Shown: positions 6,611-62,433 of the stretch, in pieces
Numbering within the stretch: the first letter of the stretch is position 1
Layout of the letters: every line of letters starts with the position of its first letter
From: Chloroflexota bacterium
GTDB lineage: Bacteria; Chloroflexota; UBA11872
DNA: 64,000 nt
Assembly (NCBI GenBank): GCA_026706485.1
Contig: JAPOYR010000004.1
Location: forward strand, 310,001 to 374,000
Direction of reading: 5' to 3'
The notes under the pieces: generated by a model
The model's database searches: none
The model's input: only the letters and a program-made list of their open reading frames with translations
What the model was told of the DNA's origin: nothing
Translations under genes and position numbers: made by a program

Positions 6611-6664
6611 ACCCAGACAACACGCTAGCGGTCCTGGCACGGACGTCACGGAATAACCGCTCCG

Positions 6665-6762: not shown

Positions 6763-6813
6763 CCGCGACCCGCCAATGTCATGTCGACCCAGCAATGTTG
6801 TATCGACCCCCAT

Positions 6814-6894
6814 GTCATTTCGAGCGAAGCGAGATATCAAAGGGACGGGGAACACGCACAACGTCCGTAGATTCCTCACTTCGTTCGGAATGAC
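6814..6894. repeat. REP-like palindromic intergenic repeat
   Basis: Opens with gtcatttcgagcgaagcgag and closes with cctcacttcgttcggaatgac, which are inverted relatives of each other. The same design recurs at 12027-12109 and 25425-25587. The rest of the 348-bp gap 6611-6958 holds the direct repeat and no gene I can support. Confidence 0.7.
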
Positions 6895-6958
6895 GGTTTG
6901 GGGGATTCGGAACGACGATTCGGGTGCGACTCCAAGTGATCGACGACCGCCAGCGCGG

Positions 6959-8131
6959 CTAGGCCCCACCCCGCTCGCGCAGCTCGGTCGACGAGATGTC
7001 GACCCCAACCTCCGAAGCGGGAATGGCCTCGAACATTTCGGCGGCGGACGGCGGCGCCCGCAAGTCATCGAGTCGTAACAGCCGTTCGCCCACGCGCCGC
7101 TCGGCCACATGAAAGCGGGCGCCCAGCTCACGCAACTCCGTCAAGGCCTGCGCCAGCGCCTCCGCGCCGCCGTAGTAGCGGGGCTCCAGGATGCGGGCCG
7201 CGGTGTCCGCGCCCACCGCGAACGCGGCGCCGGGCAGCAGGCGGGCTTTTTCGACGAATGTCGGCGCGCGCGTGAGCACCACCGGCGCTCGACCGCGAAA
7301 CTGCGGGAGCCGCGCGTCGAGCTCGGCGGCGGTGAGCGCCGGCTTGTCGACGTTCGTGATGGAGATTTCGTAGGCCACATTCCCGGACGCGCGGCGGCGG
7401 GCGGCTTCCAGCAGCGCGGCGTGGCCCTCGTGCAGCGGGTTGAACGACCCGGGCACCACGGCGCCGGGCACCGCTCCTCCCGCGCTCACGCGGCAGTCAA
7501 TGTGATCGACCGTGGCCCAGGGCTGCTCACCGCCCGCGATGACGTCCCGATAGTGCGCCAGCACGGTCGCGCCTGTCTGCAAGCGCTCATCCGAATGCAG
7601 CTCGATGTCGAATCCGCCGCCGACCATGGCCTCAGCCAGGGTGCCCAGAATGACGTGCTCGGCAATCGCCTCCTCTTCCGCCCGCGTGCGAGCGCTCTTG
7701 CGCAGCCGGACCCTCGCTTCCCAGCACTGAAAGCCGTCGACGACGGCGACGTGGATCCGGTGTGAGCCCTGGCGCTCGCGGTCGGTGACCAGGGCGGCCG
7801 TGGCGCCGAGCCCAAGCACCGGCGCATGGGGCGTCTCACGAAGCCGCAGCGCCCGCTCATACATGGCCCGCGCAAGCTCGCGCGAGGTTTCCGCCGAGCA
7901 GCGCGACGCCGGCTCCGCCCCAAGCAACTCCGTTAACGCGCGGCGTCCGTATGGCACCTGCGCCTCCAACACCGTGCGCGACGCGCCGGGACGGGTCAGC
8001 AGGCGTGGAATGACGCCGGATCCGCCGCCGGCGACCGCCAGCGCCACCATGGCTCGCGACGAGCGAATTGCGGCCACGGCCGCCTCCACCGCAGCGTCCG
8101 TGCTAGCCGACGTCCACGTAGACGCGGCCAT
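6959..8131 (-). CDS. CinA-like / NMNAT-type nucleotidyltransferase fusion protein
   Basis: A 390-aa two-domain protein. The N-terminal half resembles the CinA C-terminal (NMN deamidase) fold: MVALAVAGGGSGVIPRLLTR, then ASRCSAETSRELARAMYERA and LGLGATAALVTDRERQGSHR. The C-terminal half is a nucleotidyltransferase: VPGSFNPLHEGHAALLEAA is the (H/T)xGH nucleotide-binding site, and VDISSTELRERGG is the matching ISSTxxR motif. CinA makes nicotinate mononucleotide and NMNAT/NadD uses it, so the fusion could couple two NAD-salvage steps. The substrate is inferred, not shown. The ATG at 8131 overlaps the Rieske gene by 29 nt. Third gene of an amidohydrolase-Rieske-fusion operon. Confidence 0.75.
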   Translation of the reverse strand: MAASTWTSASTDAAVEAAVAAIRSSRAMVALAVAGGGSGVIPRLLTRPGASRTVLEAQVPYGRRALTELLGAEPASRCSAETSRELARAMYERALRLRETPHAPVLGLGATAALVTDRERQGSHRIHVAVVDGFQCWEARVRLRKSARTRAEEEAIAEHVILGTLAEAMVGGGFDIELHSDERLQTGATVLAHYRDVIAGGEQPWATVDHIDCRVSAGGAVPGAVVPGSFNPLHEGHAALLEAARRRASGNVAYEISITNVDKPALTAAELDARLPQFRGRAPVVLTRAPTFVEKARLLPGAAFAVGADTAARILEPRYYGGAEALAQALTELRELGARFHVAERRVGERLLRLDDLRAPPSAAEMFEAIPASEVGVDISSTELRERGGA

Positions 8132-8468
8132 CGGCGACGCGAGCGGGGTAGGTCCTCACGCGGGCGCGCTCGGACGCGTGGAGCGAGCGGCCGGTGCACA
8201 GGTCGTATTGCCAGCCATGCCAGGGACAGCGAAGCACGCGTGAATCCGGGTCGAGCACGATGGGCGCGCCGGCCCTGGCGGCGATGACGTGATGTCCCAG
8301 CGTGCCGCTCGATAGCCGCGCGCCTTGGTGGGCGCAGGTGTCTCGCAGGGCGTAGACCTCGTCGCCCCAGCGCACCACCACGATGGCGTGGCGTCCAACC
8401 TGCACGCGGCGTGCGCGGCGCTCGCCAAAGTCGGCGAGCGCCCCCACGTCATGCGCGGTCGAAGTCAT
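8103..8468 (-). CDS. Rieske [2Fe-2S] ferredoxin-type protein
   Basis: A 121-aa single-domain Rieske protein. Both cluster-binding boxes are intact: CAHQGARL (C-x-H) and CPWHGWQYDL (C-x2-H), separated by about 39 residues. There is no signal peptide, so it is cytoplasmic. Small Rieske proteins of this type act as electron donors to oxygenases or nitrite-reductase-like enzymes, and no oxygenase is adjacent. It overlaps the amidohydrolase gene by 20 nt and the downstream fusion gene by 29 nt, so the three are co-transcribed and probably coupled. Confidence 0.9.
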   Translation of the reverse strand: MTSTAHDVGALADFGERRARRVQVGRHAIVVVRWGDEVYALRDTCAHQGARLSSGTLGHHVIAARAGAPIVLDPDSRVLRCPWHGWQYDLCTGRSLHASERARVRTYPARVADGRVYVDVG

Positions 8469-9558
8469 AGAACGCCGCCGCGTTGCCGGACATGATCCCC
8501 TCGCGCACGTCGTCCGGAACGATGGACGGCACTGCCCGGTCGGGCGCGTCGAAGTCCCAGTGTGGGTAGTCGGTGGCGAACATCAGAAAGTCGTCGCGCC
8601 CGATCATGTCCATAATTTGCAAAAGGTGGCGCGGGTCGTCCGGCTCCTCCATCGGCTGCGTGGTGGCCCGGAAATGCTCCCGGATGTACTCGCTGGGCAG
8701 CTTCTTGAGCCACGGGACCTCGTCCCGCAGCCCCTTGTAGTTCTTGTCGAAGCGCCACATCAGCGCCGGCAGCCAGGCGAACCCGCCCTCGACCAGCGCC
8801 ACGCGCAGGTCGGGAAAGCTCTCGAACACGCCCTCGGCCACGAGGCTGAGCACCTGGGCCTCGAAGGCCTGCGGCATGCCCGTGTGGTCCTCGATGTAGA
8901 ACGACGGCCAGCCGGTGGCGGTGATGGGGCCGGGGTTGCCACCGAAGTGAATCCCCAGCGGCAGTCCCATGTCGCTGGCCGCGGCGAGGATGGGACGGTA
9001 TCGCCGCCGGCCGTAGGGCTCGACGGCGCGGACGATCAGGAGCACCTGCACGAATCGCGGGTCCCGACCGGCGCGGCGGATCTCGGCGGCGGCCGCGTCG
9101 GGGTCCTCGACGTTGACGACGATCGATCCACGCCAGCGGGGGTCGTGGTCCAGCCAGCGCGCGGCCGTCAGCTCGTTCACCGCGCGCGAGAGGTCGTTGG
9201 CGAAATCGAGATTGCGCAGCGACGACGCGACATACAGCGGGTTCAGAATGGCGGCGTCGATGCCCCAGCCGTCCAGCAGCTGGTCGCGGGCGAAGTCCGG
9301 ATCGCCGCCGGGCAAGCAGCCGCTGGGCGGGAACGAGTCGCGGCGCGCCGCATTCTCATAGAGGCGCGGGTAAATGTTGCCCCCCGGTCCCTCGAATCCG
9401 GATTGCTCGATGTAGGCATGCCAGCGCGTCGCCAGGAACGGCAGCAGCTCGTCGATCGAGTTGACGTAGTTGTGGACATCGGCGTCGATGAGCTTGAGTG
9501 GCGTCTTGGCCTGGTGGTCCGTGCGGGCTTCAGCTTCAGGTAGCGCGGTGGTGACCAT
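8449..9558 (-). CDS. Amidohydrolase-2 family metal-dependent hydrolase/decarboxylase
   Basis: A 369-aa TIM-barrel enzyme of the amidohydrolase-2 (ACMSD-like) group. The first metal site is LIDADVHNYV (D-x-H) near residue 25. Later elements are LPLGIHFGGNPG, VALVEGGFAWLPALMWRFDK and the distal FATDYPHWDFDAPD, which carries the usual C-terminal Asp. Relatives hydrolyse or decarboxylate aromatic ring-cleavage products, but the substrate here cannot be read from sequence. The ATG at 9558 has a good AAGGAGG site upstream. First gene of the operon with the Rieske protein. Confidence 0.88.
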   Translation of the reverse strand: MVTTALPEAEARTDHQAKTPLKLIDADVHNYVNSIDELLPFLATRWHAYIEQSGFEGPGGNIYPRLYENAARRDSFPPSGCLPGGDPDFARDQLLDGWGIDAAILNPLYVASSLRNLDFANDLSRAVNELTAARWLDHDPRWRGSIVVNVEDPDAAAAEIRRAGRDPRFVQVLLIVRAVEPYGRRRYRPILAAASDMGLPLGIHFGGNPGPITATGWPSFYIEDHTGMPQAFEAQVLSLVAEGVFESFPDLRVALVEGGFAWLPALMWRFDKNYKGLRDEVPWLKKLPSEYIREHFRATTQPMEEPDDPRHLLQIMDMIGRDDFLMFATDYPHWDFDAPDRAVPSIVPDDVREGIMSGNAAAFYDFDRA

Positions 9559-50828: not shown

Positions 50829-51630
50829 TCGGGTCCTTATTCGTGGAATCGGCCGCGCGCTGCCGCGCGGCCTCGAACAGGATAACGGCGGCCGCGGCGG
50901 CCGCGTTGAGCGATTCAATCTCGCGCTGCATCGGCACGCGCACGGCGGCGCGGCTCGCGGCGCGCCAGGCGGGCGAAACACCCGCCGATTCAGCTCCCAC
51001 GATCAGTCCGCAGGCGCCCGTCCAGTCGATGTCGTGGTAGGTCAGCTCGGCGTCGGCGCTGGCCGCGTACAGATCGGCCTCGGCGTCGAGCGACTCGAGG
51101 TTCGCCGGTTCGGCCGCTTTCCGAATGGGCACGCGAAACTGTCCGCCCGCGCCCGCCCGCATGGCCTTGGGACCGTAGGCATCCGCCGTACCCGGGGTGC
51201 AGATCACGCCCGTCGCGCCCGCCGCGGCGGCGCTGCGAACCATGGCGCCGACGTTGCCGGGGTCTTGCACGCCGTCCAGGACCAGGAGCAGCGCGGGGCC
51301 CGAAACCGGCGGAGGGTCCGGCGCGGCGATCACCGCGAGCACGCCTTGTGGTGTCTCGGTATCGGCGACGGCGTTGAATACCCCGTCGGTGCAACGGCGC
51401 ACGGAAACTCCCTGCGCTGCGGCCTCGTCGACAACTGCCGCGGCGGCTGGTGATGGGTCCTCCACGCACAGCACCGACTCAACTACGCCCGCATGCAACG
51501 CCTCGGCCACGAGCTTCGGTCCCTCGACGACCGTGTGGCCGGCGCGGCGGCGCGCGCTCCCGCGCTGGAGGGAACGCACATGGGCAACCGTCGGGTTGCG
51601 GACACTGCGGATGACCGGCGCCGGAGCCAC
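50812..51630 (-). CDS. SpoU/TrmH-family RNA 2'-O-methyltransferase
   Basis: A 272-aa SPOUT methyltransferase. An N-terminal substrate-binding region (SVRNPTVAHVRSLQRGSARR) precedes motif 1 DGVQDPGNVGAMVRSAAAAG, motif 2 CGLIVGAESAGVSP and motif 3 VPMQREIESLNAAAAAAVIL. These bind S-adenosylmethionine through a knot. The target is probably 23S rRNA or tRNA and cannot be fixed from sequence. In many bacteria this gene sits between rplT and pheS, as here. Confidence 0.92.
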   Translation of the reverse strand: MAPAPVIRSVRNPTVAHVRSLQRGSARRRAGHTVVEGPKLVAEALHAGVVESVLCVEDPSPAAAAVVDEAAAQGVSVRRCTDGVFNAVADTETPQGVLAVIAAPDPPPVSGPALLLVLDGVQDPGNVGAMVRSAAAAGATGVICTPGTADAYGPKAMRAGAGGQFRVPIRKAAEPANLESLDAEADLYAASADAELTYHDIDWTGACGLIVGAESAGVSPAWRAASRAAVRVPMQREIESLNAAAAAAVILFEAARQRAADSTNKDPSARAH

Positions 51631-51643
51631 GGCCCCACCGCGC

Positions 51644-51997
51644 CTAGGCGGCGGCTTGCGCCGCCTTCACCAGGTCTTCGAAGGCCTCGGGCTCGTTGAG
51701 CGCCAGGTCCGCCAGCACCTTGCGGTCGAGGTCGATGTTGGCCCGCCGCAGCCCGTGCATGAACTGGCTGTAGGTCATGCCCAGGGCGCGAGCGCGCGCG
51801 TTGATGCGAAGGATCCAGCCGCGCCGCATGTCGCGCCGCCGCGTGCGCCGGTGGGCGTAGGCGTACTGCCGCGCGTGCATCAGGTCTTCGTGGGCGGCCT
51901 TGAACTGACGGCTGCGCGCGCCCTTGTGGCCCCGCACCGCCTTGAGAACGCGGCGGCGGCGCTTGCGGCTGGCAACGCTGCGCTTCACTCGTGCCAT
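51644..51997 (-). CDS. rplT: 50S ribosomal protein L20
   Basis: A 117-aa L20. MARVKRSVASRKRRRRVLKA and YAHRRTRRRDMRRGWILRIN are diagnostic, and the C-terminal LDRKVLADLALNEPEAFEDL is also typical. It binds 23S rRNA early in 50S assembly. In many bacteria L20 represses the rpmI-rplT operon. It follows rpmI by 12 nt. Confidence 0.98.
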   Translation of the reverse strand: MARVKRSVASRKRRRRVLKAVRGHKGARSRQFKAAHEDLMHARQYAYAHRRTRRRDMRRGWILRINARARALGMTYSQFMHGLRRANIDLDRKVLADLALNEPEAFEDLVKAAQAAA

Positions 51998-52009
51998 CGA
52001 CGATCCGCT

Positions 52010-52204
52010 CTATCCGGCGAGCAGGCGCTTGGCCTGCTTGAGCTGACCGCCGGTGATGGGCTGCTCGTGGCCCTTGCTGCGGCGGGCACGGCTGCTCTTC
52101 TTGCGCCGCAGGGTCTGCGCCGTGCTCTTGGCGCACGTCACCTTGCCATTGGCGGTTTTTCGCAGCCGCTTAACGGCGGCTTTTCGTGTTTTGAGTTTTG
52201 GCAT
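52010..52204 (-). CDS. rpmI: 50S ribosomal protein L35
   Basis: A 64-aa L35: MPKLKTRKAAVKRLRKTANG at the start, and SSRARRSKGHEQPITGGQLK near the end. It is the first gene of the rpmI-rplT-methyltransferase-pheS-pheT set. infC, which often precedes rpmI, is missing here: the LRR lipoprotein genes lie upstream instead. Confidence 0.97.
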   Translation of the reverse strand: MPKLKTRKAAVKRLRKTANGKVTCAKSTAQTLRRKKSSRARRSKGHEQPITGGQLKQAKRLLAG

Positions 52205-52345
52205 AGGACAACAAAACCGCGGCGCTGCACGCCGCGATGCTTCAGGGTAGCACGGGCCGGCCGTCTGGCCCTCGTCGAATCTTTGTCACGTCCGAACTAT
52301 AGAAGCGGAAGGCGGGCCGCCGCGCCAAGTCAATCCACAGCGTCC

Positions 52346-55300
52346 TTAGGGGTTGGGCACTTCGAAGCGGAAGCCCTCGATGTCGATGTCAAGGTCTACC
52401 AGGCTCGGGTCGATGTCGAAAACCACGGCAATCGTGGCCGTCAGTCCGCCGGGCACGGCCTCGACCAGGAACAGCGGGCGGCCTTCCACTGCTGTCGACG
52501 GCATGGCGATAAGCGCATTGACTCCCGCCGTGTCCACGGCGATTTCGCTGCCGCCCGGCTCGATCAGCAGGATATTCGTCTTGGAGATCACGACGTTCCC
52601 GCCGTCGTTGGTGTTGCGGAACGTGATCGTCACGACCAGGAACAAGCCGCTCTTGGGCCGAAACGCCGAGCCGTGAACCTGCGCCAACTCCTCCAACCGC
52701 TGCACCGAATCCAGCGTGACCTCCAGCCCGTCATCCCCAAGCCGCGTGTCCCCCACCGTGGGAAGGCCGGTGGGCGACTCGGCGGATTGCGCCACGCCTT
52801 CGGGCGTGGCCGCAGCCGTGGCCTCACCCTCGGTTTCAGCCTCTGTTGCTTCGTCGACATTGCGATCGACCGCGAGCGTCGCGACTTCTTGACCCTCGCT
52901 CCCCCCGCAGAACGGCAGCCCGAGTTCGGCAATGTCACTGACTTCGGCAGTGCGCAGAGCCTCAGGTATGCACCCGGTGAACTGGTTGCCCCCGCCGAGA
53001 AACAGCTCTCGCAGGTTCACCAGGCGCCCCAGCTCCGGTGGTATCTGCCCACTCAATTGATTCCATCCGAGGTGCAGCCATTCCAGGTTGGTGAGACGTC
53101 CAAACTCGGCCGGGATCATCCCCTGCAATTGATTTCCACTCAGCGACAGGGCTTTCAAGCCGGGGAGGTCGCTCAGCTCCGGCGGGATCGCTCCCTGCAG
53201 TTGATTCCCACCCAGCCACAGAGTGGTCAATCTGGCGAGGTCGCTCAGTTCCGGCGGGATCGGCCCGCTGAGTTGGTTCTCGTGAAGCACCAGTTCCAGC
53301 AGATTGGCAAGTCGACCCAACTCGGGTGGTATCGGCCCGGTCAGCTGGTTGTCCTCAAGCGACAGCCGCTGCAGAGCGTCGAGACCTTCCAGGGCCGGCG
53401 GGATCTCCCCGCTGAGCTGATTGGCGCCAAGACTCAGCGTCGCGAGGCTCGATAGCTGGCCCAACTCGGGTGGAATTGCTCCGGACAGCTGGTTGCGGCC
53501 CAGGTAGAGGTGAATCAGGTTGGCGAGGCTGCCCAACTCTGTCGGAATTGCCCCTTCTAACTGGTTCTCCGAGAGAATCAACTGAATCAGGTTGGCGAGC
53601 CGGCCCAGCGAGGCCGGGATCTCCCCAGACAGCTGGTTGCCACGGAGGCTCAGATGTTGCAGATCGGTCAGGTTGCCGATTTCGGACGGGATCGGCCCGC
53701 TAAGCTGGTTCCAATCTAGGCCCAATTCGTTCAGGTTGCCGAGACGGCCCAACTCAGCGGGGATCGGCCCGCTGAGTTGATTCTGGTAAAGCCGCAGCAC
53801 TTCCAGATTTGCAAGGTTGCCCAACTCAGGCGGGATCGTCCCGCTCAATTGGTTTTGGTGTAGCCGCAGTTCCTTCAGATTCGCAAGATCGCCCAACGCA
53901 GGCGGGATCGGCCCGCTGAGCTGGTTGTCCTTGAGTTCCAGTCTCACGAGTCTTGTCAGGCGACCTAGTTCGGGCGGGATGGGCCCGCTCAGTCGGTTCA
54001 TCCAAAGCGCCAGCACTTCGAGCTTTGAAAGATTGGCCAGCTCAGCCGGGATGGTCCCGCTGAGTTGGCTATTCGGCAGCGACACTGCCGTAACTCGTCC
54101 ATCGACCGTAGAGACGCCACGCCAGAATTCGAGTGGCGCGTCGCTCAGCCAGTTGTTGTTGTTCGTCCAATTCGGTCCATCGGTCGCGTGATAGAGCGCG
54201 ACCAACGCTTCTCGATCAGTGGCGGGTCCCAGCGTCAGAGCCGTTTCTGGCTCGGGTGTCGGCGTCGATTCGGGACTCGAGCTTCCGCTCGCCCCACAAA
54301 ACGGCAGCCCGAGTTCCCCAGCGTCGCTGTCCTCGATGTCTTGCCAAGCCGCGGGGATGCACCCGGTGAGCTGGTTGCCACCGGCGAGACGCAGATGCGT
54401 GAGTTCCTCGAGCCGGCCCAATTCGGTCGGAATTGTTCCGCCGAGCTGGTTCGACCCGAGGGTAAGCACCTTCAAGTTTGAGAGTTGGCCCAATTCGCGC
54501 GGGATCGGTCCCGTCAGCTCGTTGTCGAGGAGCTCCAGGTTTTGCAGCTTGGACAGACTTCCCAACGCGGCCGGGATCATGCCACTGAGTTCGTTGAACG
54601 CGAGACTCAGGGCCGTCAGGCTGGCGAGTTGGCCCAACGCCGGCGGAATTGCGCCGCTGAGCTGGTTCGATCCGAGCCCCAGCACTTCGAGGTTGGAGAG
54701 GTGAGCCAGCCCCGGTGGTATTGCGCCGGTGAGATCGTTGGCCCCGAGATCCAGTGCGATCAGATTGGAGAGGCGGCCCAGCTCGGGCGGGATCGGTCCA
54801 GTCAATTGGTTGAAGAAAAGCCCGATCCACTTCAGATTGGCGAGATCGCCCAGCGCCGGCGGGATTGTTCCCTCAAGCTGGTTGAGGGAAAGCTCCAGCA
54901 ATTCCAGCTTGGTCAGGCGGCCCAACGCTGGCGGAATGGCTCCGGTGAGCCGATTGCCGATCAGGTTCAGCGCTTGCAGGTTTGCGAGGTCTCCCAGTTC
55001 AGGCGGCACGGCTCCGGTGAGTCGGTTGCCGCCGAGCCAGAGATGCGCCAAGTTGGCCATACGGCTCAACTCAGGTGGAATTGGCCCGCTGAGTTGGTTC
55101 TGGCGAAGGTCCAGCACGAGCAAGCTGGAGAGTTGGCTCAGTGCGGGCGGGATATCACCCTGCAACCGGTTGTCGGAAAGCTGCAGCTGCGTGACCCGGC
55201 TGTCGAAATCGGTCGTGACCCCATGCCATTCATCGAGCGGCGCCACGCTCAGCCAGTTGCTGTTGTTGGTCCAATTCGGTCCGTCCGTGGCGTGGTAGAG

Positions 55301-55774
55301 CGCGACGAGCGCCTCTCGATCCCTGGCAGCGGTGGACGCGGGCGCCGCGGTCGGCGCTTCCGTCGGGTCCGGCGTGGGGGTTGCCGCAGGCGCGACGCTG
55401 GGCGTCGGTGTTGGATCAGGCGTAGGCGTCGGGCTTCGGCCGGGCGTGGGAGTTGGCGACGGAGCGACCGACGGGGTTGGCTCGGGAGTCGGGTTGGGCG
55501 AAGGGGTGACCGTTGGCGTTGACGTTGGTTCCGGCGCTGGCGCCGGAGTTGGCGGAACCGTGGATGCGGGAGCCGGCTCAGGTGTGGAAACGGGCGTGGC
55601 CGGCTGCGCCGGGGCTGTCGTCGGTGCTGAGTCGGGCCTCTCAGCCGTGTCCGCTGGCGCGTCGCACGCGGCCGCCATGAACGCGAATGCGAACAGGAGC
55701 ATCAACGCGGTGGCCCGGATCGTCGTTGGCAGCGCCCCCCACGGAGCCCGTCGCACGCCGGCCCTCCCATCCAT
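52346..55774 (-). CDS. Giant leucine-rich-repeat lipoprotein with DUF4352-like C-terminal domain
   Basis: 1142 aa. A signal with lipobox (FAFMAAAC) leads into a Pro/Thr/Ala-rich stalk (about residues 40-145). Two 24-residue LRR blocks follow, of about 12 and 16 repeats with consensus NQLSGPIPPELG.L.NL..L.L. Each block opens with an N-cap of the type ALVALYHATDGPNWTNN plus WHGVTTD, and closes with a Cys-containing cap (GCIP..., LGLPFCG). A linker leads to a C-terminal beta domain (KSGLFLVVTITFRNTNDGGN) of DUF4352 type. Probably displayed on the cell surface for binding. ATG 55774 was chosen over the TTG at 55780. Confidence 0.85.
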   Translation of the reverse strand: MDGRAGVRRAPWGALPTTIRATALMLLFAFAFMAAACDAPADTAERPDSAPTTAPAQPATPVSTPEPAPASTVPPTPAPAPEPTSTPTVTPSPNPTPEPTPSVAPSPTPTPGRSPTPTPDPTPTPSVAPAATPTPDPTEAPTAAPASTAARDREALVALYHATDGPNWTNNSNWLSVAPLDEWHGVTTDFDSRVTQLQLSDNRLQGDIPPALSQLSSLLVLDLRQNQLSGPIPPELSRMANLAHLWLGGNRLTGAVPPELGDLANLQALNLIGNRLTGAIPPALGRLTKLELLELSLNQLEGTIPPALGDLANLKWIGLFFNQLTGPIPPELGRLSNLIALDLGANDLTGAIPPGLAHLSNLEVLGLGSNQLSGAIPPALGQLASLTALSLAFNELSGMIPAALGSLSKLQNLELLDNELTGPIPRELGQLSNLKVLTLGSNQLGGTIPTELGRLEELTHLRLAGGNQLTGCIPAAWQDIEDSDAGELGLPFCGASGSSSPESTPTPEPETALTLGPATDREALVALYHATDGPNWTNNNNWLSDAPLEFWRGVSTVDGRVTAVSLPNSQLSGTIPAELANLSKLEVLALWMNRLSGPIPPELGRLTRLVRLELKDNQLSGPIPPALGDLANLKELRLHQNQLSGTIPPELGNLANLEVLRLYQNQLSGPIPAELGRLGNLNELGLDWNQLSGPIPSEIGNLTDLQHLSLRGNQLSGEIPASLGRLANLIQLILSENQLEGAIPTELGSLANLIHLYLGRNQLSGAIPPELGQLSSLATLSLGANQLSGEIPPALEGLDALQRLSLEDNQLTGPIPPELGRLANLLELVLHENQLSGPIPPELSDLARLTTLWLGGNQLQGAIPPELSDLPGLKALSLSGNQLQGMIPAEFGRLTNLEWLHLGWNQLSGQIPPELGRLVNLRELFLGGGNQFTGCIPEALRTAEVSDIAELGLPFCGGSEGQEVATLAVDRNVDEATEAETEGEATAAATPEGVAQSAESPTGLPTVGDTRLGDDGLEVTLDSVQRLEELAQVHGSAFRPKSGLFLVVTITFRNTNDGGNVVISKTNILLIEPGGSEIAVDTAGVNALIAMPSTAVEGRPLFLVEAVPGGLTATIAVVFDIDPSLVDLDIDIEGFRFEVPNP

Positions 55775-55776
55775 AC

Positions 55777-57597
55777 TCAACTCGCCCCACAGAATGGCAA
55801 ACCAAGCCTGTCGAGGTCGCTCTCCTCGAGGTCTCCCAACCCCTCGGAGATGCAGCCCGTGAACCGGTTATACGCAAGCTCGAGCGACCGCAGATTCGAG
55901 AGTTGGCCAAGCTCAGGCGGAATCGGTCCACTGAGATGATTGCGGTCGAGCCGCAGGTGCTCCAGCTGGCCGAGGCGGCCGAAGTCGGACGGAATCGGCC
56001 CATGCAGCCGGTTCCCCGCAAGAACCAGAACGCGCAGGCTGGACAGACGGCCGAGCTCGGGCGGGATCGGACCACTGAGTTGATTCTCTGCGAGCGCTAG
56101 CGCCGTCACGCGACCGCTGGCATCCGTAGTGACCCCGATCCATTCGCCGAGGGGCGCCCCGCTGAGCCAGTTGGTGCTGTGCACCCAATTGGGCCCGTCG
56201 GTCGCGCGATAGAGCGCGACCAGTGCCGCGCGGTCGGCGGCGATGGCGGCTCGCAGTCCCCCGGCCGACGCCGGATCCGCAACGGCGCAGAACGGCAATC
56301 CGAGCTCTTGGAGGTCGCTGCGCGGTAGCTCGGCCAAGGCCGCGGGCATGCATCCGCTGAACTGGTTGCCACCGGCGAGGCGCAGCGACGTCAGTTTGGT
56401 GAGGCGACCGAGTGCGGCAGGAATGGCTCCCCGCAACTGGTTGTCGCTCAGCCACAGCTCGTCCAAATTGGCCAGGCGGCCGAGTGCAGAAGGAATCGCC
56501 CCGCTGAGCTGGTTGTCGCGGAGGTCCAGCCCGACCAGGCTTGCAAGCTGGCCCAATTCGGGCGGGATTTGCCCGCTGAGTCGATTGTCTCTGAGGTTCA
56601 GCCCGACCAGATTGGAAAGCTGTCCCAGTGAGGGCGGAATCGGCCCGCTGAGCTGATTGGAACCGAGCCCCAATCCGTACAGCTCGGTGAGTTGCCCCAA
56701 TTCGGGCGGGATCGGCCCGCTCAACCGGTTGCGGGAGACATCCAGCTCTTGCAGGTGGCTCGGCTGACCCAACTCCGGCGGGATCGGCCCGTCCAGTCGA
56801 TTTCCACCAAGATCCAAGAGTTCCAGGTTGGCGAGCTGGCCCAACTCCGGCGGAATCGTCCCGCTCAGCTGGTTGTCCCGCAGGACCAGCCCAGCCAGTC
56901 TTGAGAGTCGACCCAGTTCGGGCGGGATCGGCCCCTGCAGTTGGTTCCCACGAAGATCCAGGAGTTCCAGGTTGGCGAGCTGGCCCAACGCAGGCGGGAT
57001 CGCTCCGCCCAACCGGTTGAAGCGAATCTCGAGCCGTCGCAGCCGGGAGAGATTGCCAAATTCCGGCGGAATCTCCCCGCTAAGTTGGTTCCCAGAGAGC
57101 CACAGCGCTTCCAGACGTCCGAGGCTTCCCAGCGCGACCGGTAGCTCGCCGATCAGTTGATTGTCTTCGAGCGCCAGCCGCGTGACGCGGCCTGTTCGAT
57201 CCGTGACCACGCCGTGCCATTCACCGAGCGGCGCGTCACTCAGCCAGTTGGCGGTGTTCGCCCAGTTCGGTCCGTCGGTCGCGTGATAGAGCGCGACCAG
57301 CACCTCCCGGTCTGGGTTCAGAGCGGGCGCGGGCGTGGCGGTCGGCGCTGCCCTAACGCTGGGCGTTGGGGTCGGTGGCGGTGCGCCGGCCGGAGTCGGG
57401 GCTGGGTCGGGTGACGGAGCGGGCGTGGCAGTCGACACTGCGGCCCGGTCCGCCGTGAGAACGGGTGTGGACGGCTCGGCCAAAGCGTGCGTCGGCGCCG
57501 CGCCCGCGGTCGCAGGCGCATCCGCCGGCGCGTCGCACGCCGCCGCCATGAGCGCCCATGCGACCAGGACCACGAGCGCAGCGGGACGGATGGTCAT
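55777..57597 (-). CDS. Leucine-rich-repeat lipoprotein, paralogue of the downstream gene
   Basis: 606 aa. Signal peptide with lipobox (ALMAAACDAPAD) and a Pro/Thr-rich stalk, then two LRR blocks of about 12 and 4 repeats. Each block has the same N-cap (ALVALYHATDGPNWANT, ALVALYRATDGPNWVHS) and Cys cap (GLPFC). It ends after the second cap, so it lacks the DUF4352-like domain of its neighbour. The stop lies 2 nt before that neighbour's ATG, so the pair arose by tandem duplication and forms one operon. GGGAGG precedes the ATG at 57597. Confidence 0.85.
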   Translation of the reverse strand: MTIRPAALVVLVAWALMAAACDAPADAPATAGAAPTHALAEPSTPVLTADRAAVSTATPAPSPDPAPTPAGAPPPTPTPSVRAAPTATPAPALNPDREVLVALYHATDGPNWANTANWLSDAPLGEWHGVVTDRTGRVTRLALEDNQLIGELPVALGSLGRLEALWLSGNQLSGEIPPEFGNLSRLRRLEIRFNRLGGAIPPALGQLANLELLDLRGNQLQGPIPPELGRLSRLAGLVLRDNQLSGTIPPELGQLANLELLDLGGNRLDGPIPPELGQPSHLQELDVSRNRLSGPIPPELGQLTELYGLGLGSNQLSGPIPPSLGQLSNLVGLNLRDNRLSGQIPPELGQLASLVGLDLRDNQLSGAIPSALGRLANLDELWLSDNQLRGAIPAALGRLTKLTSLRLAGGNQFSGCMPAALAELPRSDLQELGLPFCAVADPASAGGLRAAIAADRAALVALYRATDGPNWVHSTNWLSGAPLGEWIGVTTDASGRVTALALAENQLSGPIPPELGRLSSLRVLVLAGNRLHGPIPSDFGRLGQLEHLRLDRNHLSGPIPPELGQLSNLRSLELAYNRFTGCISEGLGDLEESDLDRLGLPFCGAS

Positions 57598-58079
57598 TGG
57601 CCATGCCTCCCGAGGAGGCGACTGCGCGGCGAGACGCTCCGCTGGTGTCCGCGGGCGGCTGTCCCACCGCGTTAGCGCGTGCAAGCATCGCCGAAGCCCA
57701 GGTGACGGGCAATCGTCGGCGCTGCCAAGTCACCGGAGCAGACCAGTCTCGATGCCTCGGGCGGACACGTGGCGCACCGCGCGTATCCGTGCTCGGGTCG
57801 ACGCAAGATTCAAGTGTCCGGTGGCCTTTGCCTAGTCCCTTGAGCGGAGGCTGGAGGTCGAGCCCGATCCCCTCTCCCTCGAAGGCAAAGGGCCAGGGAA
57901 TCGGGCATCCGAGGCTTGCGAGCGCGTGCCGTCCACTTCTGCAACCGTCTCCGTCCGCCGGAACGACGGGGGATTGCGGGGTGGTGACCGGGCTCACCGA
58001 TGCCGTGCGGTAAAGTCGCCGGAACGGGAGGCCGGCCGCCGCGTTGTCGCGCGCCGCGATTCCCCGCTCAACGCGCCTC
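57598..58079. other. 482-bp gap between divergent LRR and phosphoesterase genes
   Basis: No gene I can support. It should hold the promoters of the leftward LRR operon and the rightward phosphoesterase. There are GC-rich stretches and a short inverted element around gcccgatcccctctccctcg..gggccagggaatcgggc (57861-57907), but no motif I can name. The last ~50 bp are repeated before the dead copy at 60234. Confidence 0.4.
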
Positions 58080-58808
58080 ATGCACATTGCCGCATTCGCC
58101 GATGTCCACGCCAATCTGACCGCGCTGCGCGCGGTGCTGCGGGACATCGACGACCACGGGCCCTTCGATCTGATCGTGTCCAACGGCGATCAAATCCTCG
58201 GCGGGCCGCGTCCGCTCGAGACCTGGCGGGAGCTCGAGCGGTCCGGCGCCTATTGCCTGCGCGGCAACACCGAGCGCGATCTGGGCATCGGAAAGTTCCC
58301 ACCAGCGCCCGCCGGCGGCCAATGGCGCGACCGCATCCTCGAGGTGTTCGACTGGACCATGGGCGCGGTGCCGGAGGATGTCCGCGCGAGGGCAGCCGGG
58401 CTGCCGCAGCGACTCGACCTGAGCATCGACAACGGGCCCCTGCTGGTCATCAGCCACGCCAATGGCGTCAATCTGGACGACTTCATGTGGCCGGATACCG
58501 ATCCGTCGGAGCTTGACCGCTTGACCGGGACGCCCCCGCCGGCGTTGCTGGTCGTCGGGCATATCCACGCCCCGATGGACCTGAAGGTCGGGCCGACCCG
58601 CGTGCTGCGGGCGGGCAGCGTGGGCTTGATGTACGAAGCCAACGCTTACAACCAGGCCCATTGGACCGAGATCACCTGGGATGCGCCGCGACGCGCGTGG
58701 ACGGCCCAGCCGCATGCCGTGACCTGGGACCACACCGCCGAGATCGCCGCGGGCCGCGCGGTTGGATATCCGGGCACGGAAATCCTGCCGGGATACGAGC
58801 GCGCCTAG
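58080..58808 (+). CDS. Calcineurin-like metallophosphoesterase (YfcE/MJ0936-type)
   Basis: A 242-aa phosphodiesterase-type protein. Metal-binding motifs: FADVHANLTALRAVL (D-x-H), VSNGDQILGGPRP (GD), LRGNTERDLG (GN-x-E/H), LVISHANG (H) and VVGHIHAPM (GHxH). All are in order. Relatives cleave phosphodiesters; the substrate is unknown. The start is the ATG at 58080, at the conserved N-terminus. It heads a three-gene block with the MIP18 and membrane genes that was duplicated downstream. Confidence 0.88.
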   Translation: MHIAAFADVHANLTALRAVLRDIDDHGPFDLIVSNGDQILGGPRPLETWRELERSGAYCLRGNTERDLGIGKFPPAPAGGQWRDRILEVFDWTMGAVPEDVRARAAGLPQRLDLSIDNGPLLVISHANGVNLDDFMWPDTDPSELDRLTGTPPPALLVVGHIHAPMDLKVGPTRVLRAGSVGLMYEANAYNQAHWTEITWDAPRRAWTAQPHAVTWDHTAEIAAGRAVGYPGTEILPGYERA

Positions 58809-58822
58809 CGGGCGTCTTGTTC

Positions 58823-59782
58823 GCGCGGGCGAGGGCTGCGATGCTTGCGCATGAGAGGCATCTCGCACGAGGCGACGATGAGCGCACCCTTGGCGGAAGA
58901 AACGATTCGCGACGCTTTGCGCGAGGTGATCGACCCCGAGATTGGCATCAACATCGTGGACCTGGGACTGATCTACGAGATCGAGCTGGCCTCCGCCGAG
59001 TCCGATGCCCACGACGTCTCGGTCACAATGACCCTGACGACGCCCGGATGCCCGGCCGGACCGCAAATCCTGCAGCAGGTGAAGCAGGTGGTGGAGGCGG
59101 TGCCCGGCGTGAGCAGCATGGATCTCGATCTCACGTTCAGCCCCTTGTGGAACGAGGAGATGCTGAGCGAGGACGTCCGCTGGATTCTGGGCCGGTAGCG
59201 CCAAGGTGGGGCGTGGCGCGCTCTGGCGTTGGGCGTGGGAGCCGCTCCTGACGCTGAGGTCGTGCGGGTTGCGGCGCGGGCGGCTCTATGCGGCGTGGAT
59301 CGCGGTGCATGGCGTGCTGGCGGTGCTGCCGGCCATCACCCGCGGACGTCTCGACTGGCCGCCACTCAATGCCTGGGAGATGCCCGTGCAAGTGCGACCT
59401 GGGGGGGGCGTGCCGATCACATACTGGGTGATCCCCCTGGAGGCGAACTATGAGGGCACGCCGCTCAATACCTATTCGATCGTGCTCTGGAGCATGGTGG
59501 CCGCCTTGGCGCTTGCCCAAGTGGTCCGACCGGCCGCCGGCCGTCGCTGGCTCTGGCTGTCCGGCTGGATTTGTGCTGGGGGCCTCGCAGCGCTGATCGC
59601 GGCGGAGGAACATTACGATTGGAAAGGCTCTCTCGGTAGCCAAGTCCAATGGTTCGAGTTTGTTTCCTCCACGGTGCGCTGGGAGGTTGTCGTCGCGCCA
59701 TTCGCAGCCCTGCCAGTAGCTTTAGCGGGCAATGTGATCTATCGGTCGGTGTCGAGGCTTCCTGCATTGGCCATGCTGTCTG
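58823..59782 (+). repeat. Tandem duplication, copy A identical tract (960 bp)
   Basis: Matches 60541-61500 base for base as far as I can read, offset 1718 bp. It covers the whole MIP18 gene and the first ~190 codons of the membrane gene. Outside the tract the two copies differ by several percent or more. This implies recent gene conversion within an older duplication. Confidence 0.85.
58878..59198 (+). CDS. MIP18/SufT/PaaD-type Fe-S assembly protein (copy A)
   Basis: A 106-aa protein with the DUF59 fold. IRDALREVIDPEIGINIVDL is the family start (DPE-x-G-x-N/D-IV-x-LGL). TMTLTTPGCPAGPQILQQVK holds the reactive Cys. SPLWNEEMLSEDVRWILG closes the fold. SufT-like members help mature Fe-S proteins; others act in phenylacetate oxidation. 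The ATG at 58878 follows GAGG. Identical to the protein at 60596. Confidence 0.88.
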   Translation: MSAPLAEETIRDALREVIDPEIGINIVDLGLIYEIELASAESDAHDVSVTMTLTTPGCPAGPQILQQVKQVVEAVPGVSSMDLDLTFSPLWNEEMLSEDVRWILGR

Positions 59783-60003
59783 TAGCCGCATGTATTTTTG
59801 CTATTGCCAGCTTAGCTCATGAAATCGTTCAGTATAACTTGTGGATGGATCTCCTAGAAGAAGGATCGGAAATGCTACTTGGAGCTGTACTTGCCGTGAT
59901 ATTGTACGAGCTGCTTATGCGATACTATATTGAGGTTAAGCACGAAGGCTCGCGGATAGGAGCATTAGCAGCACTAAGACGCCGATGGCGCGGCCAAGCG
60001 TGA
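59206..60003 (+). CDS. Polytopic membrane protein (copy A)
   Basis: A 265-aa protein with about six hydrophobic helices (AAWIAVHGVLAVLPAI, YSIVLWSMVAALALAQVV, WICAGGLAALIAAEEH, VVVAPFAALPVALAGNVI and two near the C-terminus) and no family I recognise. The last ~70 codons (from about 59783) are clearly more AT-rich and differ from copy B. The start sits just after the MIP18 stop. The function is unknown. Confidence 0.7.
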   Translation: MGRGALWRWAWEPLLTLRSCGLRRGRLYAAWIAVHGVLAVLPAITRGRLDWPPLNAWEMPVQVRPGGGVPITYWVIPLEANYEGTPLNTYSIVLWSMVAALALAQVVRPAAGRRWLWLSGWICAGGLAALIAAEEHYDWKGSLGSQVQWFEFVSSTVRWEVVVAPFAALPVALAGNVIYRSVSRLPALAMLSVAACIFAIASLAHEIVQYNLWMDLLEEGSEMLLGAVLAVILYELLMRYYIEVKHEGSRIGALAALRRRWRGQA

Positions 60004-60233
60004 CGAGCACGAACTCCCCCGGCTGGGCGCGCGCGTAGCGCACAACCCGAGGCCGCTGGACGCGCGGCCGGCGCGAGTGCCCCCGGCGCCGCAGCACCTT
60101 GCCCACCGTCGCGGCGGGGCGGCCAGCAGGGCCCAGCGTGACCGGTCCGGCGCGGCTGCGCTGGCGCGCCGCGAGGATCTCCACGACTGCCGCTGCGTCC
60201 TCGCGCGCCGCGATTCCCCGCTCAACGCGCCTC
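60004..60233. other. Remnant segment between duplicated blocks
   Basis: The minus strand just past the membrane gene still encodes FVLVTLGRAIGVLVLLMLLS, matching the end of the membrane protein at 61657-62433. A 3' stub of that gene therefore remains here. The last ~50 bp (cgcgccgcgattccccgctca) match the segment before the intact phosphoesterase. No live gene seen. Confidence 0.6.
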
Positions 60234-60526
60234 ATGCACATGGCCGTCGTTTCCGATGTCCACGCCAACCTGACCGCGCTGCGCGCGGTGCTGCGGGACA
60301 TCGACGCCCGGGCTCGCTTCGATCTGATCGTGTCCGATGGCGACTAGATTCTGGGGCGCCGCGACCGCTGGAGACCTGGCGGGAGTTGCAGCGCATCGGC
60401 GCCTGTAGCCTCTGCGGCAACACCGAGCGCGATCTCGGAACCGGTGAGTTCCCGCCCACGCCCGCGGGCGGCCGCTGGCGCGACCGCATCCTCGGTGCAT
60501 TTGACCCGGAGTACGAGCGCGCGTAG
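60234..60526 (+). pseudogene. Dead copy of the metallophosphoesterase
   Basis: Begins like the intact gene (MHMAVVSDVHANLTALRAVL) but reaches a TAG after LIVSDGD, where copy A has Q. A shifted stretch resembling the next segment follows. It then jumps to the last residues (YERA), missing more than half of the protein. An in-frame stop, a frameshift and a large internal deletion are all visible. Confidence 0.88.
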
Positions 60527-60540
60527 TGGGCGTCTTGTTT

Positions 60541-61500
60541 GCGCGGGCGAGGGCTGCGATGCTTGCGCATGAGAGGCATCTCGCACGAGGCGACGATGAG
60601 CGCACCCTTGGCGGAAGAAACGATTCGCGACGCTTTGCGCGAGGTGATCGACCCCGAGATTGGCATCAACATCGTGGACCTGGGACTGATCTACGAGATC
60701 GAGCTGGCCTCCGCCGAGTCCGATGCCCACGACGTCTCGGTCACAATGACCCTGACGACGCCCGGATGCCCGGCCGGACCGCAAATCCTGCAGCAGGTGA
60801 AGCAGGTGGTGGAGGCGGTGCCCGGCGTGAGCAGCATGGATCTCGATCTCACGTTCAGCCCCTTGTGGAACGAGGAGATGCTGAGCGAGGACGTCCGCTG
60901 GATTCTGGGCCGGTAGCGCCAAGGTGGGGCGTGGCGCGCTCTGGCGTTGGGCGTGGGAGCCGCTCCTGACGCTGAGGTCGTGCGGGTTGCGGCGCGGGCG
61001 GCTCTATGCGGCGTGGATCGCGGTGCATGGCGTGCTGGCGGTGCTGCCGGCCATCACCCGCGGACGTCTCGACTGGCCGCCACTCAATGCCTGGGAGATG
61101 CCCGTGCAAGTGCGACCTGGGGGGGGCGTGCCGATCACATACTGGGTGATCCCCCTGGAGGCGAACTATGAGGGCACGCCGCTCAATACCTATTCGATCG
61201 TGCTCTGGAGCATGGTGGCCGCCTTGGCGCTTGCCCAAGTGGTCCGACCGGCCGCCGGCCGTCGCTGGCTCTGGCTGTCCGGCTGGATTTGTGCTGGGGG
61301 CCTCGCAGCGCTGATCGCGGCGGAGGAACATTACGATTGGAAAGGCTCTCTCGGTAGCCAAGTCCAATGGTTCGAGTTTGTTTCCTCCACGGTGCGCTGG
61401 GAGGTTGTCGTCGCGCCATTCGCAGCCCTGCCAGTAGCTTTAGCGGGCAATGTGATCTATCGGTCGGTGTCGAGGCTTCCTGCATTGGCCATGCTGTCTG
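60541..61500 (+). repeat. Tandem duplication, copy B identical tract (960 bp)
   Basis: Partner of 58823-59782. The first mismatch on the right is at 61501 (c versus t at 59783), and on the left at 60540 (t versus c at 58822). Confidence 0.85.
60596..60916 (+). CDS. MIP18/SufT/PaaD-type Fe-S assembly protein (copy B)
   Basis: A 106-aa protein identical in sequence to the one at 58878-59198, with DUF59 motifs (DPEIGINIVDLGL and TTPGCPAGPQ). Its former upstream partner, the phosphoesterase, is dead in this copy. The gene itself has no damage. It is therefore a second source of the same protein, kept identical by recent gene conversion or duplication. Confidence 0.88.
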   Translation: MSAPLAEETIRDALREVIDPEIGINIVDLGLIYEIELASAESDAHDVSVTMTLTTPGCPAGPQILQQVKQVVEAVPGVSSMDLDLTFSPLWNEEMLSEDVRWILGR

Positions 61501-61724
61501 CAGCCGCATGCTTTTTCGCTTTTGTCACCTTGTCTCATGACATAGGCGCGTCTAATAACCTGTGGATAGATCTCATAGAAGAAGGGTCAGAAATGACGCT
61601 TGGGGCTATTCTTATCGTGATACTATACGAGCTGCTTATGCGATACTATATTGAGGTTAAGCATGAGGACTCGCCGATAGGAGCATTAACAGCACTAAGA
61701 CGCCGATGGCGAGGCCAAGTGTGA
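60924..61724 (+). CDS. Polytopic membrane protein (copy B)
   Basis: A 266-aa paralogue of the protein at 59206, identical for about the first 193 residues and then divergent (FFAFVTLSHDIGASNNLWID versus IFAIASLAHEIVQYNLWMD). The reading frame and length are kept, and both end in a similar '...ALRRRWRGQ' tail. The 3' end overlaps the convergent gene at 61657 by 68 bp. Function unknown. Confidence 0.7.
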   Translation: MGRGALWRWAWEPLLTLRSCGLRRGRLYAAWIAVHGVLAVLPAITRGRLDWPPLNAWEMPVQVRPGGGVPITYWVIPLEANYEGTPLNTYSIVLWSMVAALALAQVVRPAAGRRWLWLSGWICAGGLAALIAAEEHYDWKGSLGSQVQWFEFVSSTVRWEVVVAPFAALPVALAGNVIYRSVSRLPALAMLSAAACFFAFVTLSHDIGASNNLWIDLIEEGSEMTLGAILIVILYELLMRYYIEVKHEDSPIGALTALRRRWRGQV

Positions 61725-62433
61725 TGAGCACGCTCTGCCCGGCGGTATGCCGGAAGACGCCTCGCCAGTGACCGGATTCCTGGACCCTCCAGGCGGCAGC
61801 CACGGCAAAGACGATGAGAAGGCCCCATAGCACGGCGTCCACAATGAGGAATAATCGCCACGGGTCGGCCGTGACGAGGTGTTCCAGCACGCGACCGCCT
61901 CGACCGGTCCAAAAGGGCCGCATGGCAAGGTCAAGATGCGCGCGAGAGGCATCGCCATTAATCGACACCTGACCAGCCGGATTCATGTCCGAGCCGGTGA
62001 TGCCAAAGAACACAAACGGCGGCGGGCTACTGAGGACGGTGAGTTCAAGGATGTAGAGCGTTCCACCGCTGTCGGGAATCGGCGCGAATCGAATCTCGAG
62101 CGGGGCGCCGGCCGTCGATTGGTCGAGGACTCCAATGCGGCTTTCGCGGATCGCAGCGTCCGCCCCGTGGGGAATCACGCGTGCAAGCACGTCGCCCACC
62201 GTCCCCGTGCTTTCGCCTTCGATCTTGGCCCATACGTCGATACGGGACAAATAGTCATGTTGGACTCGAAACGGCTGCGTCACAAACGAGACTGGACCGG
62301 CGTAAAAGCCGTGGCGAACGTCATTCCACTCGTCCGCTTGACGCTCGAATTCGGCAAAGAGTGCGACGCCGGCGACGGTACAGAAAGCGACTACAACGCC
62401 CAGGCTGAGGAGTGCCCGTGGACGGCGGCGCAT
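61657..62433 (-). CDS. Membrane protein with extracytoplasmic domain
   Basis: A 258-aa protein: an N-terminal helix (ALLSLGVVVAFCTVAGVALF), a ~150-residue soluble domain (beta-rich: DYLSRIDVWAKIEGESTGTV, APLEIRFAPIPDSGGTLYIL), then two C-terminal helices (LFLIVDAVLWGLLIVFAVAA and LGLAIGVLVLLMLLSA). I do not recognise the family. Chosen start: ATG 62433. The C-terminal coding end overlaps the convergent membrane gene, and a degraded copy of that end persists at about 59936-60030. Confidence 0.7.
   Translation of the reverse strand: MRRRPRALLSLGVVVAFCTVAGVALFAEFERQADEWNDVRHGFYAGPVSFVTQPFRVQHDYLSRIDVWAKIEGESTGTVGDVLARVIPHGADAAIRESRIGVLDQSTAGAPLEIRFAPIPDSGGTLYILELTVLSSPPPFVFFGITGSDMNPAGQVSINGDASRAHLDLAMRPFWTGRGGRVLEHLVTADPWRLFLIVDAVLWGLLIVFAVAAAWRVQESGHWRGVFRHTAGQSVLITLGLAIGVLVLLMLLSASPHA

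What the first reader, a model, noticed from the sequence alone, without database searches (positions are those of the whole stretch)
52346..57597. Tandem LRR lipoproteins with DNA-level 72-bp repeat arrays
Two neighbouring lipoproteins carry 44 or so 24-residue LRRs in four capped blocks. The high similarity between repeats makes slippage and unequal crossing-over likely. Block sizes (12+16, 12+4) probably vary among strains. The blocks look like plant-type LRRs with Cys caps, suggesting a surface recognition role, possibly towards hosts.
Basis: partly seen in the sequence, partly recalled or inferred. Interest (0 to 1): 0.5.

Follow-up and report, generated by a model that had tools for sequence, protein, structure and literature searches.

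The report
Paired leucine-rich-repeat surface lipoproteins
Two neighbouring genes of an uncultured, probably sponge-dwelling bacterium encode what look like surface-anchored proteins built from plant-receptor-like leucine-rich repeats; across related species the first gene keeps its repeat order while the gene beside it is missing or replaced, so the locus looks like one constant and one changeable recognition protein rather than a slipping repeat array.

Summary
The two genes are real. They hold 44 plant-type 24-residue LRRs: 12+4 in the first gene of the operon (B, 55777-57684, minus strand), 12+16 in the second (A, 52346-55780). The claim of strong DNA-level repetition fails: 40 repeats (capping ones left out) average 60% identity, never above 75%. 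In the six genomes of the genus, B keeps 12 repeats in block 1 (6 of 6); 65 of 66 of these repeats best match the same position in another species; block 2 has 4 repeats in 5 of 6. B's ligand-facing (concave) positions look more constrained than its other exposed positions. The variable part is gene A: no clear orthologue was found in the five relatives, and its place holds different LRR genes (3 of 5) or none (2 of 5). One such gene does carry recent repeat duplications (98.6% and 93% identical). The sister genus lacks LRR genes at this place (0 of 7). Two of five named relatives are sponge MAGs by bin name. Best reading: a surface recognition/adhesion pair, constant (B) plus accessory (A), from a large LRR repertoire like those reported in sponge symbionts. 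Known kind, with a testable evolutionary pattern. Surface display, ligand and host role are inferred.

The parts
55777..57684 (-). Gene B (first of the operon): lipoprotein-like, LRR blocks of 12 and 4; ORF as listed, likely ATG start at 57597
   Evidence: Pfam LRR_1 E 7.4e-58
56323..57186 (-). Gene B block 1: 12 LRRs (288 residues), preceded by N-cap 57187-57318 and followed by the rest of its C-cap 56287-56322
   Evidence: 12 repeats in 6 of 6 genus genomes
55822..56109 (-). Gene B block 2: 4 LRRs, own N-cap 56110-56235, rest of C-cap 55789-55821
   Evidence: 4 repeats in 5 of 6 genus genomes, 6 in G003
52346..55780 (-). Gene A (second): lipoprotein-like, LRR blocks of 12 and 16 and a C-terminal domain; likely ATG start at 55774, two bases after gene B's stop
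   Evidence: Pfam LRR_1 E 6.7e-83
54332..55195 (-). Gene A block 1: 12 LRRs, N-cap 55196-55321, rest of C-cap 54296-54331
52943..54094 (-). Gene A block 2: 16 LRRs, N-cap 54095-54217, rest of C-cap 52907-52942
52349..52771 (-). Gene A C-terminal domain, weakly DUF4352-like (E 0.015, 16.0 bits, below the 25.9-bit cut-off); matched by parts of 423-429-aa open frames elsewhere in all six genus genomes
52216..52238 (-). Terminator-like hairpin between gene A and the genes read as rpmI-rplT (10 pairs); the scan found 6 sites in the region against 5.0 expected, so weak on its own

Best explanation
The pair encodes cell-surface lipoproteins: a lipid-anchored Pro/Thr-rich stalk holds two curved LRR solenoids in line away from the membrane, and the concave beta-sheet faces bind extracellular protein or glycan ligands. 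Gene B is the constant member: one binding shape kept in register across the genus. Gene A is an accessory member, one of many interchangeable LRR proteins that are gained, lost, fused to other domains and lengthened by occasional tandem duplication. In the likely sponge habitat the probable role is adhesion to, or recognition of, sponge matrix, sponge cells or neighbouring microbes. Shown: architecture, operon layout, orthology of B, conservation pattern, differing gene content at A's place. From a model: solenoid fold. Inferred: surface exposure, ligand binding, direction of gene gain or loss, sponge-related role.
For: Lipobox-like leader and stalk by inspection. AlphaFold model of B's 513-residue LRR part: mean pLDDT 84.9, pTM 0.66, with a second short strand after the main strand in most repeats. 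Sequence and fold matches lead with plant receptor-kinase ectodomains: GSO1, MIK2, FLS2; MIK2 (TM-score by query 0.56-0.63), ERL1 (0.52-0.59), FLS2 (0.44-0.48). B is present in 6 of 6 genus genomes, at 72-80% identity in the five relatives; 65 of 66 block-1 repeats in register. Concave positions 27 of 55 invariant against 21 of 88 other exposed positions (Fisher p 0.003); w 0.26 against 0.48, bootstrap of the difference -0.44 to -0.01. Concave/other ratio 0.46 (0.32-0.67) for B against 1.13 (0.78-1.54) over 37 runs from other LRR genes. Gene A: long LRR matches (over 350 residues) in the other five genomes are 50-58% identical, apart from one at 64% in G005 that includes the C-terminal domain, and its place holds other LRR genes or none. 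LRR hits per genome 21-76 in the genus.
Against: No expression, localisation or ligand data. Lower w at concave positions could be structural: in a second conserved LRR gene the concave/other ratio was 0.85 in this genus (not significant) but the deficit was significant in the sister genus. The pN difference in gene B alone is not significant over all repeats (8% of bootstraps at or above 0). G005's LRR gene with an A-like C-terminus might be a diverged, moved orthologue of gene A, which would make A less of a newcomer. Sponge origin rests on bin names of two relatives; the window's own habitat is unknown. Only six genomes, one per species. The model's linker and second N-cap have pLDDT mostly below 60.
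Confidence: 0.6

Rival explanations
1. Contingency locus: slippage and unequal crossing-over at near-identical 72-bp repeats change repeat number among strains and so switch or tune surface binding.
For: A different gene at the same place in relative G003 has repeat pairs 98.6% (lag 144 bp) and 93% identical (lag 72 bp); its apparent orthologue in G005 has 8+11 repeats against 9+12. Gene B block 2 has 6 repeats in G003 instead of 4. G004 repeat 5 best matches another species' repeat 10 (0.89), and repeats 5-6 look replaced in G001 and G004 without a change in number.
Against: In the window's own genes repeats are at most 75% identical and no exact direct repeat exceeds 28 bp. B's repeat number and register are conserved between species. 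A second LRR gene keeps 10 repeats in 11 of 11 genomes of two genera.
Confidence: 0.12
2. Eukaryotic-like mimicry proteins that blunt uptake by sponge amoeboid cells, rather than adhesins.
For: LRR proteins are counted among eukaryotic-like repeat proteins of sponge symbionts (PMC8163846, PMC6306507, PMC9531527; passages); the first two cite work in which repeat proteins (ankyrin type) of sponge symbionts changed phagocytosis.
Against: The cited phagocytosis work is on ankyrin-repeat proteins; I saw none on LRR lipoproteins. A lipid anchor fits surface display better than delivery into host cells. Not excluded, and it overlaps with the main reading.
Confidence: 0.18
3. Structural or cell-cell (biofilm) surface proteins with no host ligand, kept because they hold symbiont aggregates together or bind the cell's own envelope.
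For: Conservation of B's concave face fits a ligand that does not change, such as a self component.
Against: Differing neighbour genes and uneven change at concave positions in other LRR genes of the genus fit varied outside ligands better; indirect.
Confidence: 0.1

Closest known systems
Plant LRR receptor-kinase ectodomains (GSO1, MIK2, FLS2, ERL1)
   Same: 24-residue LxxLxLxxNxLxGxIPxxLGxLxx repeats; leading PDB matches by sequence and by fold; the W.GVT.D...RV element at the end of gene B's second N-cap aligns with the GSO1 cap, weakly (7.2 bits)
   Different: No kinase or transmembrane part in the window genes; lipid anchor instead; N-caps without cysteines; two capped blocks per protein; bacterial
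Eukaryotic-like LRR proteins of sponge symbionts, including Chloroflexota
   Same: LRR proteins in sponge-associated bacteria, Chloroflexota among them (PMC6306507, PMC8163846, PMC9531527; passages only)
   Different: The passages seen report presence and enrichment of LRR proteins; they do not describe this operon, its constant/variable split or selection on the binding face (full texts not read)
LGR proteins of Protochlamydia amoebophila (PMC2216083; title and start of abstract in a search listing)
   Same: Bacterial LRR proteins whose evolution is described as concatenation of repeats
   Different: Obligate intracellular bacterium; relationship to these proteins was not tested
Leptospira LRR proteins, including the LIC_11051 fibronectin-binding family
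   Same: Bacterial LRR proteins; PDB entries LIC12759, LIC11098 and LIC10831 match gene B
   Different: NCBIfam score far below the family cut-off (198.1 against 1000 bits for gene A), so only the repeat is shared

Membership tests
Plant-specific LRR class | 24-residue repeats with GxIP and LGxL motifs | tested here: met
   the capping repeat of three of the four blocks has a one-residue insertion (GGN)
Plant-specific LRR class | second short beta-strand after the main strand | tested here: met
   AlphaFold model, strands such as 143-145 and 150-153; a model, not a structure. That this strand marks the class is recalled
Plant-specific LRR class | Cys-paired N-terminal cap | tested here: not met
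   all four N-caps lack Cys. Pfam listed no LRRNT family for gene B's two N-caps at E up to 5 or for either whole protein at E up to 0.001; gene A's N-caps were not scanned apart. That plant caps carry a Cys pair is recalled; one of the two is visible in GSO1
Bacterial lipoprotein | signal peptide with lipobox and +1 Cys | tested here: met
   by inspection (MAAAC in both); no predictor available
Phase-variable tandem-repeat contingency locus | near-identical repeats at DNA level | tested here: not met
   window genes: mean 0.595, max 0.75. A gene at the same place in G003 does have such repeats
Phase-variable tandem-repeat contingency locus | repeat number varies between strains | tested here: inconclusive
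   between species: gene B block 1 fixed 6 of 6, block 2 is 4 in 5 of 6; strains of one species were not available
Sponge-symbiont eukaryotic-like LRR proteins | encoded by a sponge-associated bacterium | tested here: inconclusive
   2 of 5 named relatives have jk18x bin names, the style used for Caribbean Ircinia MAGs; COS3 and RHO3 bins look like Coscinoderma and Rhopaloeides (inference); source of the window unknown
Sponge-symbiont eukaryotic-like LRR proteins | acts on the host | not testable with these tools
   needs binding or uptake assays

The most novel reading that the evidence does not exclude
The genus carries a bacterial counterpart of a constant-plus-variable receptor set: one LRR lipoprotein (B) whose binding face is preserved across species, beside an exchangeable LRR slot and a genome-wide repertoire, some blocks of which change mainly at ligand-facing positions (for example 26 of 40 concave against 16 of 64 other exposed positions changed in one 8-repeat block), as described for plant resistance genes (recalled). 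Such a repertoire could set which sponge or which neighbours a symbiont species binds.
Probability: 0.25. Interest if true: 0.7.

Novelty: new member of a known kind. Interest (0 to 1): 0.4.

Why it matters
LRR proteins are reported as enriched in sponge symbionts, but what they bind is not known from anything I saw. A conserved member (B) with a fixed, constrained binding face is a concrete bait for finding a ligand, and the changing neighbour gives a natural contrast. It also tempers a common inference: long LRR arrays are not automatically slippage-prone; here repeat-by-repeat orthology is kept across species while neighbouring genes differ.

Tried and rejected
Slippage at the window's own repeats: rejected on DNA identity, exact-repeat length and positional orthology. 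Gene A as a duplicate of gene B: no shared register between any two blocks (permutation p 0.41-0.80). Adjacent repeats more alike than distant ones: only weak signals (gene A block 2 lag 1 p 0.023, gene A block 1 lag 3 p 0.034; the other seven of nine lag tests not significant). A named effector, internalin or adhesin family: each NCBIfam match listed for genes A and B lies far below its cut-off. Plasmid or phage carriage: the query (101 aa, gene B's second N-cap with flanks) had no match in either collection at E 1e-5; gene A and the rest of B were not searched there. RNA element in 51000-59000: no Rfam match at E up to 1. Sigma-70 promoter in 51600-58200: none found.

Positive selection: the neighbour gene pair G003/G005 first gave concave w 1.41 against 0.24 for gene B in the same two genomes (9 repeat pairs that I picked for clear orthology, 11 for gene B). 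On the 7 repeats of its longest run w is 1.40 but rests on 2.5 synonymous differences; with dS from all sites it is 0.50 (0.32-0.94) against 0.23 (0.09-0.40) for gene B. I therefore do not claim w above 1. The largest accessory value (w 1.70, 0.97-3.73; 1.16 with all-site dS, 0.70-1.76) also does not exceed 1 with confidence, though its concave/other contrast is strong (p 8e-5 among 37 runs); another run shows the opposite at p 0.03. Over 37 accessory runs the ratio is 1.13 (0.78-1.54), with 22 of 37 showing more amino-acid change at concave positions. Filters: ORFs with at least 5 pattern-matched repeats from the stretches I had fetched (61 ORFs), runs of at least 5 repeats with each pair at 68% identity or more and a mean of 75% or more, each repeat used once per partner genome, remnants of fewer than 3 repeats dropped; the identity floor removes the most diverged repeats, and runs sharing genes are not independent.
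Full report
The object. The window lies in a 3.37-Mb assembly (G000:C4:310001-374000) whose named relatives are Chloroflexota MAGs. On the minus strand two genes follow each other. Gene B (ORF 55777-57684, likely ATG 57597) ends two bases before the likely ATG of gene A (55774; ORF 52346-55780), so they read as an operon. Upstream and divergent is a metallophosphoesterase-like gene (58044-58808, Pfam Metallophos_2 E 9.4e-12). Downstream, in the same direction, come genes that I read as rpmI and rplT, then a SpoU-type RNA methylase, pheS and pheT (the names rpmI, rplT, pheS and pheT are from inspection).

Anatomy. Both proteins start with a hydrophobic leader ending in MAAAC, then a Pro/Thr-rich stretch. 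Gene B has a 12-repeat and a 4-repeat block, gene A a 12-repeat and a 16-repeat block: 44 LRRs. Each block has a Cys-free N-cap and a C-cap with two cysteines 21 residues apart; with the lipobox Cys these are all the cysteines there are. Gene A adds a C-terminal domain, weakly DUF4352-like. Stretches that match it occur in 423-429-aa open frames in all six genomes of the genus (71-73% identity in the five relatives, 66% in the own genome), and the own-genome match is 79% identical at DNA level. So gene A may be a fusion of LRR blocks with a domain copied from such a protein (inference).

Is the DNA repetition strong? No. Among 40 repeats (the capping repeat of each of the four blocks left out), mean pairwise DNA identity is 0.595 and the maximum 0.75; identity between blocks is about that within blocks; four-fold degenerate sites in shared codon boxes agree at 0.497 within blocks and 0.487 between, against 0.379 expected from codon usage. 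The longest exact direct repeat in the region is 28 bp, so a short-read assembly should not have confused the repeats (inference). The other DNA matches in the own genome are 63-79% identical, apart from a 42-base match at 86%.

Comparison with relatives. The genome search gave five other genomes of the same genus and seven of a sister genus (a later genus search with a limit of 50 again gave six in all). Stretches around pheT were fetched for 18 genomes. The place between the metallophosphoesterase gene and rplT holds LRR genes (at least 3 pattern-matched repeats) in 6 of 6 genus members, and the stretch holds none in 7 of 7 sister-genus genomes and in the 5 more distant ones. In 6 of the 7 sister-genus stretches both flanking genes lie close together; in G006 the metallophosphoesterase gene was not found. 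Gene B is present in all six genus genomes, at 72-80% identity in the five relatives, where pheT is 91-95% identical. Block 1 has 12 repeats in 6 of 6; block 2 has 4 in 5 of 6 and 6 in G003 (counted by me from the sequences printed; the automatic counts are lower in places because the pattern missed irregular repeats). For 65 of 66 repeats of block 1 (repeats 1-11 in six genomes) the best match in the other five species is at the same position; the exception is G004 repeat 5, close to repeat 10 of G000. Pair by pair, the best match is the same position in 7-11 of 11 repeats, and repeats 5-6 look replaced in G001 and G004.

The second place is different. G000 has gene A (12+16); G002 has a one-block gene of 12; G003 and G005 have a two-block gene (9+12 and 8+11); G001 and G004 have none. 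G005 has a further LRR gene, with a C-terminus like gene A's, on the other side of gene B, and ORFs resembling a DNA methylase and a transposase (names from inspection) between the LRR genes and rplT. A search of the genus with gene A gave no clear orthologue: long LRR matches (over 350 residues) in the other five genomes are 50-58% identical, except one of 64% over residues 759-1144 to that further G005 gene, which might be a diverged and moved relative of gene A. In G003 the two-block gene has repeat pairs 98.6% and 93.1% identical, which shows that tandem duplication does operate in this family, though not visibly in the window.

Selection. With Nei-Gojobori counts on gene B block 1 (11 repeats, six genomes, 15 pairs), w was 0.06 for scaffold positions, 0.26 for concave positions (2, 3, 5, 7, 8 of each repeat) and 0.48 for other exposed positions (the assignment of positions to the concave face is from recalled LRR structure). 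Bootstrapping repeats gave a w difference, concave minus other, of -0.44 to -0.01; the pN difference alone spans zero. Invariant columns: 27 of 55 concave, 21 of 88 other (Fisher p 0.003). A control LRR gene has 10 repeats, without gaps, in 11 of 11 genomes examined of both genera (alignment); its repeats match the same position in 99 of 99 cases when all other genomes are allowed, and in 41 of 54 when the genus is compared only with the sister genus. Its concave/other ratio is 0.85 in this genus and shows a significant deficit in the sister genus (0.13 against 0.29), so some of the constraint may be general. Over 37 runs from other LRR genes the ratio was 1.13 (0.78-1.54), against 0.46 (0.32-0.67) for gene B. 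So gene B's binding face is conserved more than that of the other LRR runs that could be compared. Individual accessory blocks vary widely; the clearest has 26 of 40 concave and 16 of 64 other positions changed (p 8e-5 among 37 runs), but no w was shown to exceed 1.

Fold and relatives. AlphaFold gave a solenoid model of gene B (513 residues, alignment of five; pLDDT 84.9, pTM 0.66; linker and second N-cap poor). The 50 PDB matches that Foldseek listed are plant receptor ectodomains, and the leading phmmer hits are too. Bacterial LRR families in NCBIfam match only through the repeat, far below cut-off. A query of gene B's second N-cap with flanks (101 aa) was found in 25 of 201 Chloroflexota genomes, 9 of 133 genera; 22 of the 25 are in this class, 14 of them in this family (at most 24 candidates per genome were scored, so match counts per genome are lower bounds).

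Habitat and literature. Five named records carry related pheT genes, four of them of the same genus. Two have jk18x bin names; PMC9531527 (passages) uses that style for Caribbean Ircinia sponge MAGs and reports LRR among enriched eukaryotic-like proteins. COS3 and RHO3 bins may come from Coscinoderma and Rhopaloeides, two hosts in PMC8163846 (passages), but I did not confirm this; a search that asked for three of six terms listed two papers, neither with the accession prefixes, and would have missed a paper holding a prefix alone. PMC6306507 (passages) found LRR genes only in the Caldilineae and SAR202 genomes among its six sponge Chloroflexi genomes. Searches for selection on bacterial LRR binding faces in symbionts (5 papers) and for Chloroflexi LRR lipoproteins with tandem duplication (10 of 108 listed) showed no paper on this locus among the titles listed; I read none of those papers, and most subscription journals are not in that library.

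Verdict. Surface recognition is the best functional reading, not demonstrated.

Noticed in passing
window 58035-61740: A direct duplication of roughly 1.7 kb beside the LRR genes: FeS_assembly_P (DUF59-type) protein 100% identical in both copies, a 265/266-aa unassigned protein 93% identical, and a partial second metallophosphoesterase copy at 76-79%.
   Followed up: partly
L062 (G000:C4:117500-129500), ORF 6378-9038 minus, against L094: A 19-repeat LRR gene in which one 8-repeat run differs from its relative in G003 mainly at concave positions (26 of 40 against 16 of 64), while another 8-repeat run does not: candidate for diversifying selection.
   Followed up: partly
G000:C4:118900-127900 and G000:C8:161200-168300 (L062, L063): Large clusters of LRR genes with up to five blocks per protein (10, 8, 13, 6, 12 repeats by pattern count).
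   Followed up: partly
L068 and its relatives in L074-L083: An LRR protein with an unassigned N-terminal region of about 300 residues and exactly 10 LRRs in 11 of 11 genomes of two genera.
   Followed up: partly
L045 9961-12331 (G005): ORFs resembling a site-specific DNA methylase and a transposase lie between the LRR genes and rplT; in the other five genus genomes the last LRR gene ends within about 400 bases of rplT. A possible route for gene turnover. Names from inspection.
   Followed up: no
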